From NCBI GenBank assembly GCA_900319275.1, contig ONNS01000046.1, positions 1-34,274 of the forward strand: a stretch of DNA of 34,274 nucleotides, given 5' to 3'. Below are positions 21,822 through 28,354 of the stretch, piece by piece. This stretch comes from an uncultured Eubacteriales bacterium (GTDB taxonomy: Bacteria; Bacillota; Clostridia; Oscillospirales; Oscillospiraceae). The translations under genes and the position numbers were made by a program. Each line of letters begins with the position of its first letter. Within the stretch, counting starts at the first letter, position 1. The notes beneath the pieces are model-generated. The model saw nothing but the letters and a program-made list of their open reading frames with translations. It did no database searches and was not told the origin of the DNA.

Positions 21822-22631
21822 TCAGTTTGAAGAAAGTGCGTGGATGCGCAGATAGTTGAGCATGGCGTTGAGTCCGGCGGCGTTGAGCGTGCGGCCGTCC
21901 GGCTCGGCAAACTCGACGCGCAGGTAACCGCCGTCGTTCAATACGCTCGTCAGATCGGCATACCAGGCGCCGGTCTCGCGGCAGACGCGCATGATCCAGC
22001 TGTTGATTTCGGCAGCCCGTGTGCCGCTCATGTTGTCCAGACCGGTGTAGCCCGGGGCCACGGAGGCGACGGGGCAGCAGATCATGACGGTAGCGGGGCT
22101 GTAGTTGTGGATGTCCTCGATCAACGCCTCATAGTACTGCACAAAGCTGTCTTCGTTCAGACCGTCCAGCCCCTCGCTGCCGATGCACAGCACCAGCGTT
22201 TTCGGCTGGGAGAGCATGCAGGCCTGGCCGGGGCTGCGCTGGGAGTTGTCGGCGGGGAAGGTGATCGTCCACAGGTCGAGCTTGTTCATCGGCAGCGAGC
22301 CGGACTCGCTGCCCCAGACCTGGCCCGCAGTCAGGCCCGAGGAGCGCAGGGGGATAAAGCTTGCGTCACACAGATACACCAGCGAATCAAGATAGACCTG
22401 TCCGGCGTCGGCGCTCTGCTGCAGGCGGTGCACTGTGCCGTCGGCGGTCATGCCGGACTGCCGGACCTCGGTCTTCGGCGCGCTGACGCTGTGCCCCAGG
22501 TCCATCACCGGGCGGCTCTTGTCGCCATAGTAATGACCGACGGCCTCCAGCACAAAGCCGACGAACACGGCCGCCAGCGCGATCGCGATGCAGGCGGCCC
22601 AAATCATGTCTTTTAATGCACGGTTGCGCAT
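21822..22631 (-). CDS. Membrane-anchored SGNH-like protein without the catalytic residues
   Basis: This 269-residue protein has one N-terminal membrane anchor (residues 10-30) and an extracellular domain. The layout is that of the Clostridial SGNH/GDSL family. A first block LVYLCDASFIPLRSSGL is followed by QVWGSESGSL, then VLCIGSEGLDGLNEDSFVQY and a final DGRTLNAAGLNAMLNYLRIH. In active relatives the first block is GDS and the last DGxHLNAAG. Here GDS is C88-D89-A90 and the His is Thr, so the Ser-His pair is lost; S91 is shifted by one position. It is probably a pseudoenzyme or binding protein at the cell surface. A weak AAGGAT ribosome site precedes ATG 22631. Confidence 0.6.
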   Translation of the reverse strand: MRNRALKDMIWAACIAIALAAVFVGFVLEAVGHYYGDKSRPVMDLGHSVSAPKTEVRQSGMTADGTVHRLQQSADAGQVYLDSLVYLCDASFIPLRSSGLTAGQVWGSESGSLPMNKLDLWTITFPADNSQRSPGQACMLSQPKTLVLCIGSEGLDGLNEDSFVQYYEALIEDIHNYSPATVMICCPVASVAPGYTGLDNMSGTRAAEINSWIMRVCRETGAWYADLTSVLNDGGYLRVEFAEPDGRTLNAAGLNAMLNYLRIHALSSN

Positions 22632-22657
22632 GAAATCAGATCCTTACATCGTAAATA

Positions 22658-22684
22658 ACAGGCGGCGGGATTGCCGCCGCCTGT
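22658..22684. repeat. GC-rich hairpin upstream of the SGNH-like gene
   Basis: ACAGGCGGCGG (22658-22668) pairs with CCGCCGCCTGT (22674-22684) around GATTG. On the minus strand it is followed by TGTTATTT, so it may act as a weak terminator for transcription coming from the EF-G-like gene. Confidence 0.55.
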
Positions 22685-22715
22685 TGGGGATAAAGAGTAT
22701 GTAACATACGAGCAT

Positions 22716-22925
22716 GGGGGAGTTCAGAGGGGCACTCCCCTCTGATTTTTCGCCTCGAAAAGCGAAAAATTAATTCAAATTTGTTTTTTCCGGGGACATG
22801 TGCCTCGGAAAAAACTCTTCTCACGGTGCAAGTGTGCGAGGCGTCCCCCCGCAAGCCGAGTGCGCGCAGCACCGTGCAGCCCTTCTAACTGTTCAGCCCC
22901 CATAAAGGGGCTGAACAGTTACGAT
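22716..22925 (-). repeat. Five-hairpin structured repeat element, copy A
   Basis: Read on the minus strand from 5 bases after the EF-G-like stop codon, five hairpins follow one another. Hairpin 1 is 22886-22900 with 22907-22921 (15 perfect pairs). Hairpin 2 is 22822-22829 with 22869-22876 (CACGGTGC/GCACCGTG). Hairpin 3 is 22783-22792 with 22806-22815 (GTTTTTTCCG/CGGAAAAAAC). Hairpin 4 is 22746-22753 with 22762-22769. Hairpin 5 is 22724-22732 with 22737-22745 (TCAGAGGGG/CCCCTCTGA). A second copy at 27549-27750 has the same order and spacing. Hairpins 1 and 2 differ between the copies by compensatory changes. It could be a structured 3' UTR, a processing or attenuation element, or a MITE-like repeat. 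Confidence 0.85.
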
Positions 22926-22926
22926 C

Positions 22927-24939
22927 TTATTCCTCTTCGGCCTTGGACTCTTCGATGACCTTCTGCTGCACGTTGCCGGGAGCTTCCTCATAGCGGTCAA
23001 ACTTGCAGGTGAAGGAGCCGGCGCCCTGCGTCATCGAGCGCAGGTCGATCGTGTAGGTGCTCATCTCGGCCATCGGGACGTCGGCCTCGATCGTGGTCAT
23101 GCCGTCCTCAGCGGGCATCGAGCCCATCATCGTGCCGCGGCGCTTGGAGTTGATGTCGCCGATGATGGCGCCCTGGTACTCATCGGGGATCGTGACGAAG
23201 AGCTTGCCGATCGGCTCGAGAATGGTGGGACGGGCCTTGGGGATGCCGTCCTGGTAGGCGAGACGGGCAGCCGTCTGGAAGGCCATATCGTTCGAGTCGA
23301 CAGGGTGGTAGGAGCCGTCATACAGCGTAGCCTTCAATCCGACCAGCGGATAGCCGGCGAGCACGCCCTTCTGCACGGCGTTGCGCAGACCCTTTTCAAC
23401 AGAGGGGAAGAAGTTTTTCGGAACGGCGCCGCCAAAGACCTCTTCGGCGAAGATCATATCGTCGCTCTCCTCCTGGGGCTCGAAGCGGATCCACACGTCA
23501 CCGAACTGACCGGAGCCGCCGGACTGCTTCTTGTGGCGGCCGTGGGCCTCGACCTTGCCCTTGATCTTCTCGCGGTAGGCGACGCGGGCGCTCTTGAGCT
23601 CGGTATCGACGCCGAAATTGCTCTTGAGCTTGGTGCACAGAACGGCCATCTGGATGTCACCCTGGCAGGAGAGCACCATCTGATGCGTCTCGGCGTTGTT
23701 GACCAGCGTGAAGGAGACGTCTTCTTCGCCGAGCTTGGCAAGACCGGCGGCAACCTTGTCGTCCTGCCCCTTGGTCTTGGGGGCGATGGCCTGGCTGTAG
23801 TTGGGCTCGGGGAGCACAACGGCGGGCAGCGTCACATCTTCCTTGGAATCGACGACCACATCGCCGGTCTTCCAGTCCATCTTGCCGACGGCCACGATGT
23901 CGCCGCAGACGGCCTCGGTGACCTCGGCGGTCTTCTTGCCGGTGAAGGTGTACAGACGGCCCAGCTTGTCGGTGCTGGAGGCGCGGACGTTGTGCAGGCT
24001 CATGCCGCCGTTGACCTTGCCGGCGAGGACCTTGACAAAGCTGTACTTGCCGAACTTATCGGAGATGGTCTTGAACACAAAGCCGAGCGTGGTGTCGCCG
24101 CTCTTGTCCTCGGGAGCGGGGACGTAGTCCAGAATGCCCTGCAGCATGGCGGCGGTGCCCATGTTGGTCATACCGTCGGTGGCGTAGACGGGAACGACGC
24201 TGCGCTCCTTGACACCGATCTTCAGACCTTCAACGATATCGGCCTCGTCGAGCTCCATGGTCTCAAAGAACTTCTCCATCAGCTCTTCGGTGGCGCCGGC
24301 GGCGGCTTCCATCAGCTCGGCGCGCAGCTCTTCCACGGTGTCGGCGTCGGCGGCGGGGACAGCGCCCTTCTCGACCTTGTTGCCCTTGGTGGTATAGGCC
24401 ACGTTGTGTACCAGGTCGATGACGCCGGTGCCGTCGGACTTGGGGATCGTAACGGGGCAGATGCTGCTGCCGTATTTATCCTTCAGCGTGTTGAGAGCCT
24501 TGGTATAGTCGCCGTGCTCCTCACGGCACTTGGTGATCGAGAACATCACGGGCAGGTTGGCGGCCTTCAGATAGTTCCAGCTGCGCTGGGCGCCGACGGC
24601 GACGGACTCGGCCGTGTCCTTGGCGGAGACGGTGATTACGCCGGCCTCGACCGCGCGCAGGGCATAGAGCACCTCGCCGACAAAGTCGAAGTAGCCGGGG
24701 CAGTCGAGCACGTTGATCTTGTGGCCGTTGAACTCCACAGGCGCGATGGCGGTGGAGATGGTGATCTGGCGGGCGATCTCTTCGGCGTCATAGTCGCAGA
24801 CGGTGTTGCCGTCAGAGACTTTGCCGAGACGGTCGATCGCACCGGTGACATAGAGCATGCTCTCGGTCAGGCTGGTCTTGCCGGTGTTGCCATGGCCCAG
24901 GAGGGCGATGTTACGGATGTTTTTTGTTTCGTAGCTCAT
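22927..24939 (-). CDS. EF-G-like translational GTPase (FusA2-type paralogue)
   Basis: This 670-residue protein has the five-domain EF-G layout. The G domain has P-loop GHGNTGKT (residues 15-22), the switch I Thr in RQITIST, and switch II DCPGYFDF (79-86), where EF-G has DTPGH. The G4 motif NKxD is not intact; the aligned segment is TKCR (136-139). Domain IV and the C-terminal GSMPAEDGMTTIEADVPMAE block are present. The GHxNxGKTSLTE, LYVTGAIDRLG and DxPGY features place it in the EF-G-like clade rather than the canonical fusA or TetM. Its cellular role is unknown; guanine specificity may be relaxed. It has its own promoter and is divergent from the V-ATPase operon. A structured repeat begins right after its stop. 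Confidence 0.9.
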   Translation of the reverse strand: MSYETKNIRNIALLGHGNTGKTSLTESMLYVTGAIDRLGKVSDGNTVCDYDAEEIARQITISTAIAPVEFNGHKINVLDCPGYFDFVGEVLYALRAVEAGVITVSAKDTAESVAVGAQRSWNYLKAANLPVMFSITKCREEHGDYTKALNTLKDKYGSSICPVTIPKSDGTGVIDLVHNVAYTTKGNKVEKGAVPAADADTVEELRAELMEAAAGATEELMEKFFETMELDEADIVEGLKIGVKERSVVPVYATDGMTNMGTAAMLQGILDYVPAPEDKSGDTTLGFVFKTISDKFGKYSFVKVLAGKVNGGMSLHNVRASSTDKLGRLYTFTGKKTAEVTEAVCGDIVAVGKMDWKTGDVVVDSKEDVTLPAVVLPEPNYSQAIAPKTKGQDDKVAAGLAKLGEEDVSFTLVNNAETHQMVLSCQGDIQMAVLCTKLKSNFGVDTELKSARVAYREKIKGKVEAHGRHKKQSGGSGQFGDVWIRFEPQEESDDMIFAEEVFGGAVPKNFFPSVEKGLRNAVQKGVLAGYPLVGLKATLYDGSYHPVDSNDMAFQTAARLAYQDGIPKARPTILEPIGKLFVTIPDEYQGAIIGDINSKRRGTMMGSMPAEDGMTTIEADVPMAEMSTYTIDLRSMTQGAGSFTCKFDRYEEAPGNVQQKVIEESKAEEE

Positions 24940-25004
24940 GTGTTGCTTCCTCTCTGAAAAGTATATTCTTAATTCAATAAGACTGTGTATGCCGAACTTC
25001 TGAT

Positions 25005-25034
25005 ATTATACACTATGCGGGGCCGATTTGGCAA
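25005..25034 (-). promoter_or_regulatory. Promoter of the EF-G-like gene
   Basis: On the minus strand TTGCCA (25029-25034) and TATAAT (25005-25010) are 18 bases apart, 65 bases before the ATG at 24939. Confidence 0.65.
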
Positions 25035-25126
25035 CAGGAAATTGCAGATATTGAAATACCGCAGCCATTTGTGCAAATCCGGCAAAGTGTCTGTGAAATT
25101 TACGTGACCTTATACAGGGTTTTCTC

Positions 25127-25155
25127 TTGAAATGCGTGCGCGTTTGCGGTAATAT
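25127..25155 (+). promoter_or_regulatory. Promoter of the V-type ATPase operon
   Basis: TTGAAA (25127-25132) and TAATAT (25150-25155) are separated by 17 bases. The leader to ATG 25253 is about 90 bases. This is the only strong promoter seen for the nine-gene operon. Confidence 0.75.
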
Positions 25156-25252
25156 ATAACGCAGTGAAATTTGCCCGCTTGTCGGAAACAACGCGCTGCG
25201 GCAAATTTCCCGCTATCCTGTGAAATGATTATAAGACAGAGGGGGTGTGCCA

Positions 25253-25567
25253 ATGTCATTTGAAGCGATTACAAGCATCGCCCAGGCGGAGGCCGAGGCA
25301 AAAAACACGCTCGCCCAGGCCGAGCTCCGCGCTAAACAACTGATCGCCGAGGCTGAGGGCGCCGGGAAGGCTGCCGTCGAAGCAGCCGTTGCCAAAGCCG
25401 ACAGCGAGCTCAACGAGCTGCGCCGTCAGGCCGAGGAAAAAGTGAAGCGCGACGCGGATGCGGCGGCAAAAAAGCTCGAAACAGAAAAGAAAGAGCTTTG
25501 CGTCCGGGCCGATGGCCGGCTGGAAAAAGCCGCGTCACTCGTGGTGGAAAGGATTGTGAAAAACTGA
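25253..25567 (+). CDS. ntpF: V-type ATPase peripheral stalk subunit (G/H type, NtpF-like)
   Basis: This 104-residue, almost wholly helical protein is rich in Ala, Glu and Lys (SIAQAEAEAKNTLAQAELRA). It is the pattern of the stalk coiled coil that pairs with subunit E to hold the A3B3 head to subunit I. The position at the head of the operon, directly before subunit I, matches E. hirae ntpF. ATG 25253 is preceded by AGAGGGGG; the upstream GTG at 25247 overlaps the ribosome site and is less likely. Subunit I begins one base after its stop. Because stalk genes vary so much in sequence, the assignment rests on composition and context. Confidence 0.85.
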   Translation: MSFEAITSIAQAEAEAKNTLAQAELRAKQLIAEAEGAGKAAVEAAVAKADSELNELRRQAEEKVKRDADAAAKKLETEKKELCVRADGRLEKAASLVVERIVKN

Positions 25568-25568
25568 G

Positions 25569-27548
25569 ATGGCCATTGTAAAAATGAAAAAGCTTCGGCT
25601 GATGGCTGTCCGCTCCGATAAGGAGGAGCTGCTGCGCGAGCTGCTCCGCCATGGCTGTGTGGAGATTTCCGAGCCCGAAGCGCTCTCGGATGAGGCGCTC
25701 GGCGCGTCGCTCAAACGTGAGAGCAGCCGGCAGATGACCTGGCGCAGCCGCCAGCAGGATCTGCAGAACGCCCTCACGGTGCTGGGCCGCTATGCCCCGG
25801 CAAAGGGCAAGCTGCTCGCGCCAAAGCCTACGGCCAGCGGCGAGAGCCTTCTGACGGAGGAGCTGATCAAAACCGAGCTCCCTGTGGCCGGGCAGATCCT
25901 GCAGCAAAACGACGCGATCCGCCGCGCGCAGACCGAGGAGAGCCGCCTGAAATCGGCGATTGCCAGCCTGCAGCCATGGAAGGGGCTGGAGCTGCCGCTC
26001 GAGACTGCGGGCACCGAGCGCTGCGCCGTGCAGCTGGGCACCGTTCCGCTGCGCACCGAGCTTCTCAAAGCGCAGGAAGCGCTCGCCGAGGCCTCCGACG
26101 AGGCCGAGCTCTTCGAGATTTCGAGCGACAAGGGGCAGCGCTATCTGCTGCTCGTCGCCATGAAGGAACAGCTCGCAGACGCGCTCGAGGCCCTGCGGCC
26201 TTTCGGCTTTTCGGCCTTCAGCCCGAACGGTCTGACCGGAACGGCCACGGACAATATCGAACGCATGGAGCGCGAGCTCGAGGAGCTGGCGGCGGAGAGA
26301 AAGAATTGCGAACAGACCATTGTCGATCTCGCCTCCCACCGCGCGGCGCTCAAGCAGGCCTCGGACGCGGCTGGGACGCAGCTCGCGCTGTGTGAAGCGC
26401 AGGACAAACTCTGCGGCACCGAATCGGTCGTCATATTGCAGGGCTGGATGCCCGCCGAGCGCGAAGAGGAGCTTGCACGGGTCTTCGAGCGCTTCGACTG
26501 CGCCTGGGAGTGTGAGGAGCCTGCCGAGGACGAATACCCCGAGGTGCCTGTTCAGCTGAAAAACAACGCCTTCACCAACAGCATGAACATGGTGACGAAC
26601 ATGTACGCGCTGCCGCAGTACGGCACCGTGGACCCAAACCCCTTGATGGCTCCGTTCTTCATCCTGTTCTTCGGACTGATGATGGCCGACATGGGCTACG
26701 GCATTCTGATGATCCTCGCGGCGATCGTCTATTTATTGAAGGTCAAGCCCGAGGGCGGCGCTCTGGCTACCTGGCAGCTGGTGCTCTACGGCGGCATTTC
26801 CACCTTCGCGATGGGCGTGCTGACCGGCGGCTTCTTCTCCGACTCGCTCGAGAAGATCGTCAATCTTGTGAACCCCGCGGCAAACTTCCATCTCTGGCAC
26901 CTGTTCTCACCCGAGACCGACAGCACCATGGTGCTCTACGGCTCGATGGTGCTGGGCGTGCTGCATCTGAACACCGGCATGGCCGTGTCCTTTGCGCGCA
27001 AGTGGAAGGCCGGCGACAAGGCGGGCGCCTTCTTTGAAGAGGGCAGTCTGTGGATCATGCTGCTGGGCATCATCCTCTTTGCGCTGTCTATGATCGTCAA
27101 GGGCTTCCCCGGACAGATCGGGCTCGGCGTGCTGATCATCGGCACGGTACTGCTGCTCCTCGGCTCGGGGCGGAACGCCAAGGGCTTCGGTAAGGTCACG
27201 GCGGCCTTCGGCTGCATCTACAACACGGCGACCGGATGGTTTGGCGACGTGCTGAGCTACTCGCGTATCATGGCGCTGATGCTGGCCGGCGGTGTCGTCG
27301 GCAAGGTGTTCAACACCGTCGCCATCATGCCCGCGGAATCGAACGGGCTGAACGTATGGACGGGTCTCGCCTTTGCCGTGATCTTCCTGCTGGGCCACGC
27401 GATGAACTTCGCGCTGAACCTGCTGGGCTGCTATGTGCACGATTTGCGTCTGCAGTGCCTTGAGTTCTTCGGCAAGTTCTATGTCGACGGCGGCCGGCCC
27501 TTCCGCCCGCTGACCTACAGCCAGACCTATGTGAAGGCAAAGGATTAA
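25569..27548 (+). CDS. ntpI: V-type ATPase subunit I (membrane stator, a-subunit)
   Basis: This 659-residue protein has an N-terminal cytoplasmic half (residues 1-330) of alpha/beta and coiled-coil segments that binds the E/G stalks. The C-terminal half has about seven or eight membrane helices starting at NPLMAPFFILFFGLMMADMG. The blocks GVLHLNTGMAVSFARKW, DVLSYSRIMALMLAGGVVG and the helix GHAMNFALNLLGCYVHDLRL carry the conserved Arg needed for ion passage between the half-channels. It lies directly after the stalk subunit. Unusually, a 200-base structured repeat and a 323-base gap separate it from subunit K, whereas other genes in the operon nearly touch. Confidence 0.95.
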   Translation: MAIVKMKKLRLMAVRSDKEELLRELLRHGCVEISEPEALSDEALGASLKRESSRQMTWRSRQQDLQNALTVLGRYAPAKGKLLAPKPTASGESLLTEELIKTELPVAGQILQQNDAIRRAQTEESRLKSAIASLQPWKGLELPLETAGTERCAVQLGTVPLRTELLKAQEALAEASDEAELFEISSDKGQRYLLLVAMKEQLADALEALRPFGFSAFSPNGLTGTATDNIERMERELEELAAERKNCEQTIVDLASHRAALKQASDAAGTQLALCEAQDKLCGTESVVILQGWMPAEREEELARVFERFDCAWECEEPAEDEYPEVPVQLKNNAFTNSMNMVTNMYALPQYGTVDPNPLMAPFFILFFGLMMADMGYGILMILAAIVYLLKVKPEGGALATWQLVLYGGISTFAMGVLTGGFFSDSLEKIVNLVNPAANFHLWHLFSPETDSTMVLYGSMVLGVLHLNTGMAVSFARKWKAGDKAGAFFEEGSLWIMLLGIILFALSMIVKGFPGQIGLGVLIIGTVLLLLGSGRNAKGFGKVTAAFGCIYNTATGWFGDVLSYSRIMALMLAGGVVGKVFNTVAIMPAESNGLNVWTGLAFAVIFLLGHAMNFALNLLGCYVHDLRLQCLEFFGKFYVDGGRPFRPLTYSQTYVKAKD

Positions 27549-28354
<806 letters not shown>

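What the first reader, a model, noticed from the sequence alone, without database searches (positions are those of the whole stretch)
22716..22925. Five-hairpin element with compensatory changes between two copies: candidate structured RNA or structured mobile repeat
Five hairpins stand in fixed order over about 200 bases and recur at 27549-27750. In hairpin 1 an AGTCCC/GGGACT stem became AGCCCC/GGGGCT. In hairpin 2 CGCCCTGC/GCAGGGCG became CACGGTGC/GCACCGTG, three independent pair exchanges. Hairpin 4 shows a C-G to U-G change. The loops diverge while the stems stay paired, which argues for selection on structure. Each copy starts 2-5 bases after a stop codon and reads away from it. I know no named RNA family with this layout.
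Basis: seen in the sequence. Interest (0 to 1): 0.88.

Follow-up and report, generated by a model that had tools for sequence, protein, structure and literature searches.

The report
Stop-codon-hugging multi-hairpin mobile repeat
The five-hairpin stretch is one of about fifty copies of a small non-coding mobile DNA element that settles right behind genes, and relatives of it occur in many genera of the same bacterial order.

Summary
In detail: both copies sit 2-4 nt behind a stop codon and carry the stated compensatory exchanges. They belong to a family with 57 covariance-model matches in this genome and matches in 45 of 295 genomes of the order, own included. It is mobile: terminal inverted repeats GTAACTNTTCAGTC...GACTGAATAGTTAC, 8-bp target duplications (at least 7 of 8 in 10 of 24 testable copies, null 0.5%), and empty sites for both window copies (fusA 27 of 27 informative loci; ntpI 26 of 29 inspected). 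Covariation is massive (35 of 38 pairs). Wobble pairs are nearly absent from the three main stems (21 GU, 36 AC of 2871 cells), though not from P2's doubtful inner helices (70 GU of 533). That points to DNA hairpins or templated correction rather than RNA. Here 34 of 47 copies begin within 12 nt of a co-oriented stop codon. In relatives the core also rides a chassis flanked by duplicated terminator-like hairpins (20 of 39 loci show a flanking duplication, 0 of 195 controls). No Rfam match. The transposase was not found. BOX and YPAL are the closest known kinds.

The parts
22701..22922 (-). Element copy 1, behind the EF-G-like (fusA) gene; 3' boundary inferred by eye from a degenerate terminal repeat
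   Evidence: empty orthologous site
22886..22921 (-). Copy 1, first hairpin: 5' terminal repeat plus its subterminal inverted copy
22822..22876 (-). Copy 1, P2 stem (CACGGTGC/GCACCGTG) with inner loops
22783..22815 (-). Copy 1, P3 hairpin (GTTTTTTCCGAGG...CCCCGGAAAAAAC)
22746..22769 (-). Copy 1, P4 hairpin (TTTTTCGC...GCGAAAAA)
22724..22745 (-). Copy 1, P5 hairpin; on the other strand it is followed by TTTTT and looks like a terminator
27551..27778 (+). Element copy 2, between ntpI and ntpK of the V-ATPase operon, with 5' and 3' terminal repeats
   Evidence: empty orthologous sites
27552..27585 (+). Copy 2, first hairpin (TAACTGTTCAGTCCC/GGGACTAAACAGTTA)
27596..27647 (+). Copy 2, P2 stem (CGCCCTGC/GCAGGGCG)
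27654..27686 (+). Copy 2, P3 hairpin
27699..27722 (+). Copy 2, P4 hairpin
27723..27744 (+). Copy 2, P5 hairpin; terminator-like on the minus strand
27765..27778 (+). Copy 2, 3' terminal repeat GACTGAATAAAAAC (3 mismatches to GACTGAATAGTTAC)

Best explanation
It is a non-autonomous DNA transposon (MITE-like), mostly 222-237 bp, and about 410-520 bp with extra modules. SHOWN: its ends are inverted repeats, many copies have an 8-bp (sometimes about 10-bp) target duplication, both window copies are insertions missing from relatives, it is multicopy, and its core is shared by several families of the order. SHOWN for this genome: most copies lie at stop codons, co-oriented with the gene. INFERRED: a transposase encoded elsewhere binds the GTAACTNTTCAGTC ends and moves it. 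INFERRED: the main stems are kept as Watson-Crick palindromes at DNA level (hairpin or cruciform DNA used in transposition, or hairpin-templated correction), and any RNA fold of the read-through 3' UTR is secondary. INFERRED: behind a stop codon and facing forward the insert is nearly harmless, because the terminal repeat itself supplies a TAA and no forward terminator forms, whereas on the reverse strand P5 plus TTTTT could stop transcription.
For: Copies. Terminal repeats and target duplication; an 89-bp internally deleted copy keeps both ends and a perfect 8-bp duplication. Empty sites: fusA, ntpI. Distribution: 19 of 59 relatives by DNA search, 45 of 295 genomes of the order, own included, two copies on a contig filed as viral. 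Covariation; one orthologous locus with 9 two-sided, 4 one-sided and 0 broken changes in 70 pairs. Wobble deficit in P2-P4. Stop-codon adjacency: 34 of 47 copies with a 5' repeat, or 33 of 36 with a same-strand gene end within 60 nt, where a rough uniform model expects 10.6; 7 of the 10 copies with the clearest duplications show it too.
Against: No transposase with these ends was found: the only IS66 transposase match in the genome has a GTAAGCG end as read by eye, and a candidate end in a relative breaks off at contig ends. 14 of the 24 copies with both ends show no clear target duplication (at most 6 of 8), window copy 2 among them (5 of 8); copy 1 lacked a scorable 3' repeat. The inner helices of P2 hold 70 G-U and 12 A-C in 533 cells, as an RNA would, unless those helices are wrongly drawn. 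Orientation is not absolute elsewhere: 10 of 69 copies in relatives lie reversed between co-directional genes, as do L175 and L177. Gene calls used a home-made codon score.
Confidence: 0.85

Rival explanations
1. A structured regulatory RNA (3' UTR element or small RNA) whose stems are kept because the RNA fold works; multicopy by duplication.
For: Very stable fold, conserved unpaired stretches (GAGAAG, GGATTTGAAT, GCGCACTCG and CTCGCACACTT), co-orientation with the upstream gene, stems that co-vary at one orthologous site, G-U pairs in the inner P2 helices (70 of 533 cells).
Against: Almost no G-U pairs in P2, P3 and P4 and slightly more A-C than G-U, unlike nine tRNAs. Clear transposon ends and duplications. 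P2 tolerates a roughly 190-nt extra module. Some related copies are reversed.
Confidence: 0.15
2. The paired changes come without selection, by hairpin-templated (quasi-palindrome) mutation that copies one arm onto the other.
For: Two-sided swaps such as C-G to G-C are frequent while one-sided wobble states are rare, as expected if an arm is re-copied in one event.
Against: The P2 arms are separated by about 40 nt in short copies and far more in long ones, and separate stems each keep pairing. Not tested directly.
Confidence: 0.25
3. Stop-codon adjacency is only a selection filter: insertion is random, and only inserts that cut neither a gene nor a ribosome-binding site survive.
For: Gaps are short (median 71 nt). 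The terminal repeat carries a TAA that serves as the stop in 12 of 36 cases (offset +3). None of 55 copies lies inside a called gene.
Against: A rough uniform model within the same gaps predicts 10.6 of 36 near the stop; 33 observed, 0 of 100,000 simulations as high. Young copies show the same placement (7 of 10).
Confidence: 0.4
4. A co-opted transcription terminator or mRNA 3'-end protector.
For: Clusters of hairpins behind stop codons are proposed to terminate transcription (abstract of PMC8355165). P5 plus TTTTT is terminator-like on the reverse strand.
Against: Copy 2 sits inside the V-ATPase operon, and 28 of 47 copies with a 5' repeat lie between co-directional genes, where a forward terminator would be harmful. 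No terminator-like site was called in the forward direction inside either window copy.
Confidence: 0.15

Closest known systems
BOX elements of Streptococcus pneumoniae (PMC3049150, passages read)
   Same: Modular, multicopy mobile repeats with terminal inverted repeats, target duplications and predicted stem-loop structure; size varies by internal modules; found clustered with and inserted into other repeats.
   Different: The passages call the pneumococcal repeats almost absent from most other streptococci, with BOX-related elements in S. suis; this core was matched in 26 of 149 sampled genera of another order. No BOX sequence was compared here. The passages shown do not describe stop-codon adjacency.
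YPAL / RU-2 palindromic repeat of Yersinia (described in PMC2229807, passages read)
   Same: A 168-bp mobile repeat, not A+T-rich, whose target duplications vary from 3 to 26 bp and whose targets span or adjoin dyad symmetry, much like the hairpin-duplicating chassis found here in relatives.
   Different: Hosts are enterobacteria. The window's own class makes 8-bp duplications without a hairpin. Here several different passengers share the hairpin-duplicating ends.
SPRITE repeats of S. pneumoniae (PMC3049150, passages)
   Same: Enriched close to the 3' ends of genes.
   Different: A duplex followed by a uridine-rich tract, terminator-like; the present element has five hairpins and no forward terminator-like site.
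IS1202-family insertion sequences (PMC10132070, abstract and passages read)
   Same: A subgroup has unusually long target duplications (16-28 bp), near the size of the duplicated hairpins; a possible source of the transposase for the second chassis.
   Different: No IS1202-type transposase was sought here. Their ends begin TGT; the ends here begin TCAGACTGT or GTAAC.
REP / REPIN elements (abstracts seen in the listings; otherwise recalled)
   Same: Multicopy extragenic palindromes.
   Different: REPs are 20-40 bp, many with GTAG or CGTC tags; here about 225 bp with terminal inverted repeats and target duplications.

Membership tests
MITE (miniature inverted-repeat transposable element) | Short, no transposase gene | tested here: met
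   199-520 bp end to end in 24 copies; too short for a transposase gene; sequences read
MITE (miniature inverted-repeat transposable element) | Terminal inverted repeats | tested here: met
   GTAACTNTTCAGTC...GACTGAATAGTTAC; 24 of 55 copies have the 5' end within 3 and the 3' end within 4 mismatches
MITE (miniature inverted-repeat transposable element) | Target site duplication | tested here: met
   At least 7 of 8 in 10 of 24 copies (shifts of up to 2 nt allowed); 0.5% of mispaired flanks reach 7 and none 8
MITE (miniature inverted-repeat transposable element) | Empty sites in relatives | tested here: met
   fusA: 27 of 27 informative loci; ntpI: 26 of 29 inspected, 2 cut by contig ends, 1 with another repeat
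MITE (miniature inverted-repeat transposable element) | Parent insertion sequence with the same ends | tested here: inconclusive
   IS66 piece has other ends; candidate in G024 cut at contig ends, no match to it in plasmids or viral contigs, 3 weak short matches in 300 family genomes
Any Rfam RNA family | Score above the family's gathering threshold | tested here: not met
   Window: none. 18 loci: only a tRNA. E up to 5 in 22600-27850: 4 weak matches, none inside the copies
Structured RNA (stems kept at RNA level) | G-U pairs tolerated in co-varying stems | tested here: inconclusive
   P2-P4: 21 GU and 36 AC of 2871 cells against 17 GU of 199 in 9 tRNAs, p = 3e-11: not met. Inner P2 helices: 70 GU of 533: met, but their drawing is doubtful
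BOX elements | boxA/boxB/boxC module sequences | not tested
   No BOX sequence was aligned; only passages of PMC3049150 were read
YPAL/RU-2 | Target duplications of varying length at dyad symmetries | tested here: not met
   Own copies: none of 52 tested shows a duplicated hairpin beside its ends; L018 repeats 29 nt that are no clear hairpin; one divergent copy (L023 940-1150) does have a duplicated hairpin when tested outside the core. Related chassis:
Intrinsic terminator | GC-rich hairpin followed by a U-tract in the gene's direction | tested here: not met
   No such site in the forward direction inside either window copy; hits inside the copies lie on the opposite strand

The most novel reading that the evidence does not exclude
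An order-wide family of transposable DNA hairpin cassettes that homes to gene ends: one chassis to stop codons in a fixed orientation, the other to intrinsic terminators, which it recognises as hairpins and duplicates whole. The conserved multi-hairpin core would be the DNA-structure part read by the transposition machinery, kept as strict Watson-Crick palindromes and swapped between chassis.
Probability: 0.25. Interest if true: 0.8.

Novelty: new variant of a known kind. Interest (0 to 1): 0.58.

Why it matters
It would be a large, apparently unnamed repeat family; the named relatives by one protein are mostly rumen and gut assemblies. It gives a case in which strong covariation, often taken as proof of a functional RNA, may reflect DNA palindromes; the missing G-U pairs in the main stems offer a simple test for other such claims. 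The two insertion habits, at stop codons and at terminator hairpins, pose a concrete question about how transposition machinery finds the ends of genes. For annotation, such repeats can end contigs and change gene 3' ends.

Tried and rejected
Rfam families, at gathering thresholds and down to E = 5: nothing inside the element. IS66 as the mobiliser, suggested by recalled family traits (GTAA ends, 8-bp duplications): the one IS66 match has other ends. A parent insertion sequence via the ends of the C104 relative, via ends in G024, via plasmids and viral contigs: nothing autonomous. The core in plasmids: no match; in phage records: one partial match, on a record whose genes look bacterial by eye. 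Hairpin duplication as the habit of the window's own class: not seen. An empty site for the hairpin-duplicating class: the chosen upstream gene is repetitive, so the test gave nothing. RNA-borne insertion (group II intron type) was considered and not pursued.

Weak points of single calls. One search's two-sequence consensus favours compatible pairs, so its zero broken pairs flatters the structure. In one search, L230 (1 of 40 fetched) was left out because a contig end cuts it; of the 20 loci scoring 18 or more, L246 is not a clear hairpin and L243's repeat lies far from the core, while L240 (score 17) is a duplicated hairpin below the cut. In one search, L267 is not an element and L273 carries our core although the script says not, so the corrected count for other passengers is 7 of 12, not 8 of 14; this part had no mispaired control; rows L044 and L040 are contig-edge artefacts. 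In one search my expression labelled four P2 modules 'elsewhere'; the printed context shows them inside elements. One search was given 69 of the 97 matches. PHROGs did not confirm the viral contig: 1 of 4 proteins matched, a family of unknown function. One search scored 150 of 1540 first-look candidates, so 57 is not a full count, and a few of the 57 overlap or are partial.

Full report
WHAT IS THERE. The two copies exist as described. Read in the direction of the gene before them, each begins at an (A/G)TAACTGTTCAG repeat 2-4 nt behind a stop codon. The order is: a first hairpin made of that repeat and its inverted copy; a closing strand AGGGG; P2 with a conserved interior; GAGAAG; P3; a linker like AGATTTGAAT; P4; P5; and the closing strand CTCCCC. 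Copy 2 folds far better than dinucleotide shuffles in the gene's direction (z -8.0). On the opposite strand copy 1 has z -8.2 and copy 2 z -11.6. In each of the three, 0 of 200 shuffles were as stable.

COPIES. A DNA search of the window's genome gave 58 matching pieces (40 of 80 candidates scored). Sixteen short copies were aligned. Others carry a roughly 190-nt extra module inside P2, or a second type of P2. A covariance model of the P2-P4 core, built from 28 sequences, finds 57 matches at E up to 0.01 in the genome (150 of 1540 candidates scored; a few overlap or are partial). In an even sample of the order it finds matches in 45 of 295 genomes and 26 of 149 genera, the window's own genome included. 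Stricter filters make this a lower bound for true members, though several genomes rest on one match near E = 1e-4 to 1e-3, which could be chance. By DNA search, 19 of 59 relatives have matches. The nearest named relative by the ntpI protein is a metagenome-assembled Ruminococcaceae bacterium, RUG11160 (89% identity).

MOBILITY. Class A, the kind in the window, has terminal inverted repeats GTAACTNTTCAGTC...GACTGAATAGTTAC. The 14-mer GTAACTNTTCAGTC occurs 25 times in the genome, and its reversed control 0 times. Of 55 copies examined, 24 have both ends (5' within 3, 3' within 4 mismatches). Ten of these 24 show target duplications matching in at least 7 of 8 positions, while mispaired flanks reach 7 in 0.5% of cases and 8 never. 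Examples are CGCAACTG, ACGTCTGA, GTGAATTT and AGTCAGTA. An 89-bp internally deleted copy keeps both ends and a perfect duplication. Window copy 2 has no convincing duplication (5 of 8), and copy 1 has a degenerate 3' end.

EMPTY SITES. Behind fusA, the closest relative (96% identical DNA over 971 bases) reads from the stop codon straight to the fusA terminator. Of 29 loci printed, one is the window and one is cut by a contig end; 27 of 27 informative ones lack the element, and the model finds it in none of the 29 other loci searched, two of which do not reach the stop. Behind ntpI, 26 of 29 inspected loci (of 80 fetched) reach the next start codon within 24-63 nt, 2 are cut by contig ends and 1 carries another repeat. 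The model finds no copy at that junction in any of the 80 loci, some of which are cut before it. Both window copies are therefore insertions.

STRUCTURE IS KEPT. On 16 own copies, 11 of 60 pairs show kept two-sided changes. On 28 core sequences, 15 of 40 pairs. On 93 distinct core sequences from relatives, 35 of 38 pairs, with 511 two-sided cells against 132 in shuffles and 39-63 in slid controls; that alignment was fitted to the model, which favours it. In two species that hold a copy behind the same gene (as judged by eye; coding identity 88% over 300 bases), 9 of 70 pairs differ on both sides, 4 on one side and none is broken, while 24 of 91 unpaired columns differ.

DNA RATHER THAN RNA. 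In P2, P3 and P4 together there are 2750 Watson-Crick cells, 21 G-U, 36 A-C and 64 others. Nine tRNAs from the fetched loci have 17 G-U in 199 pairs; Fisher p = 3e-11. The tRNA finder itself disfavours mismatches, so only the G-U contrast should be used, and the cells are not independent. Against this stands the interior of P2, where the drawn short helices hold 70 G-U and 12 A-C in 533 cells; most of these G-U lie at a few fixed positions, and the helices are uncertain. I infer that the main stems are kept in DNA, or that one arm is copied onto the other; the data do not separate these two and do not exclude an RNA role.

PLACE AND DIRECTION. Of 47 own copies with a recognisable 5' end, 34 begin within 12 nt of the stop codon of a same-strand gene. 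For the 36 with a same-strand gene ending within 60 nt, 33 do so where a rough model of uniform placement in the same gaps expects 10.6 (0 of 100,000 simulations as high). In 12 of these 36 the stop is the TAA of the terminal repeat. Five copies have a divergent gene upstream, and none of 55 lies inside a called gene. Among the 10 copies with the clearest duplications, 7 show the same placement. Genes were called with a simple codon score, so single cases may be wrong. In relatives the pattern is weaker: of 69 copies (of 97 matches), 23 lie forward between co-directional genes, 16 between convergent genes, 10 reversed between co-directional genes, and 20 are unresolved. A contig filed as viral in IMG/VR carries two copies, each about 3-4 nt behind a stop codon and co-oriented; PHROGs matched only 1 of its 4 proteins tested.

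A SECOND CHASSIS. In related genomes the same core is bounded by TCAGACTGTMGACAAA-type ends and often flanked on both sides by the same terminator-like hairpin. A flanking duplication was found at 20 of 39 loci and in 0 of 195 mispaired controls; in 19 of the 20 the repeated piece is a hairpin, 27-40 bp long and different from locus to locus. The same ends also carry unrelated passengers: 17 of 27 loci with these ends show a duplication, 7 of 12 among the other passengers after correcting two labels (no control). The Yersinia YPAL repeat is a published precedent for variable duplications at dyad symmetries (PMC2229807, passages). Direct proof by an empty site failed. In the window's genome one divergent copy (L023 940-1150) shows it among five tested that way.

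WHAT IT IS AND IS NOT. I file it as a MITE-like element with an unusual structured core and an unusual preference for gene ends. It is not in Rfam. Eight searches of the paper library by repeat, host and target terms listed no paper on it; the lists were capped and most subscription papers are not held, so a description may exist. The transposase is unknown.

Noticed in passing
L146 5978-6056; L148 after 5983; L098 and L115: Another repeat (CCTTCCCCTTGAGGGGAAGG...GATGAGGTG type) sits right behind the ntpI stop in L146, a similar one in L148, and two copies occur in the window's genome, one nested in an element with the same GTAACTGTTCAG ends.
   Followed up: partly
L274, L279, L281, L282, L284, L286, L288, L289, L290, L292 (genome G034): TCAGACTGTMGACAAA ends carrying a different passenger (GTCATTGCGAACC...TGGCAATCC), several flanked by duplicated hairpins.
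   Followed up: partly
L099 2488-2576: An 89-bp internally deleted element with both ends and a perfect 8-bp duplication GTTTACTG.
   Followed up: yes
L018, L023, L025, L029, L030, L034, L035, L039, L102 and others: A roughly 190-nt module inside P2, itself rich in inverted repeats; 15 occurrences of its first 18 bases in the fetched own loci, all inside elements.
   Followed up: partly
L116 1500-1641 and L118 (genome G024): GTAACTATTCAGTCTTTATAGAGC... repeated at two contig ends; possibly the end of an autonomous insertion sequence lost in assembly.
   Followed up: partly
L293 943-1061 and 5566-5686 (IMG/VR contig): Two element copies on a contig filed as viral, each right behind a stop codon.
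   Followed up: partly
L238 and L089: The two flanking hairpins have loops that are reverse complements of each other, as if one had been flipped.
   Followed up: no
L101 8200-9839: An IS66-type insertion sequence cut off by the contig end, with a GTAAGCG end by eye.
   Followed up: partly
L042 1515-1900; L102; L031: Copies interrupted by further inserts (for example GGTAAACGCTGATTAATACG... in L042, and sequence inside P3 in L031 and L102).
   Followed up: no
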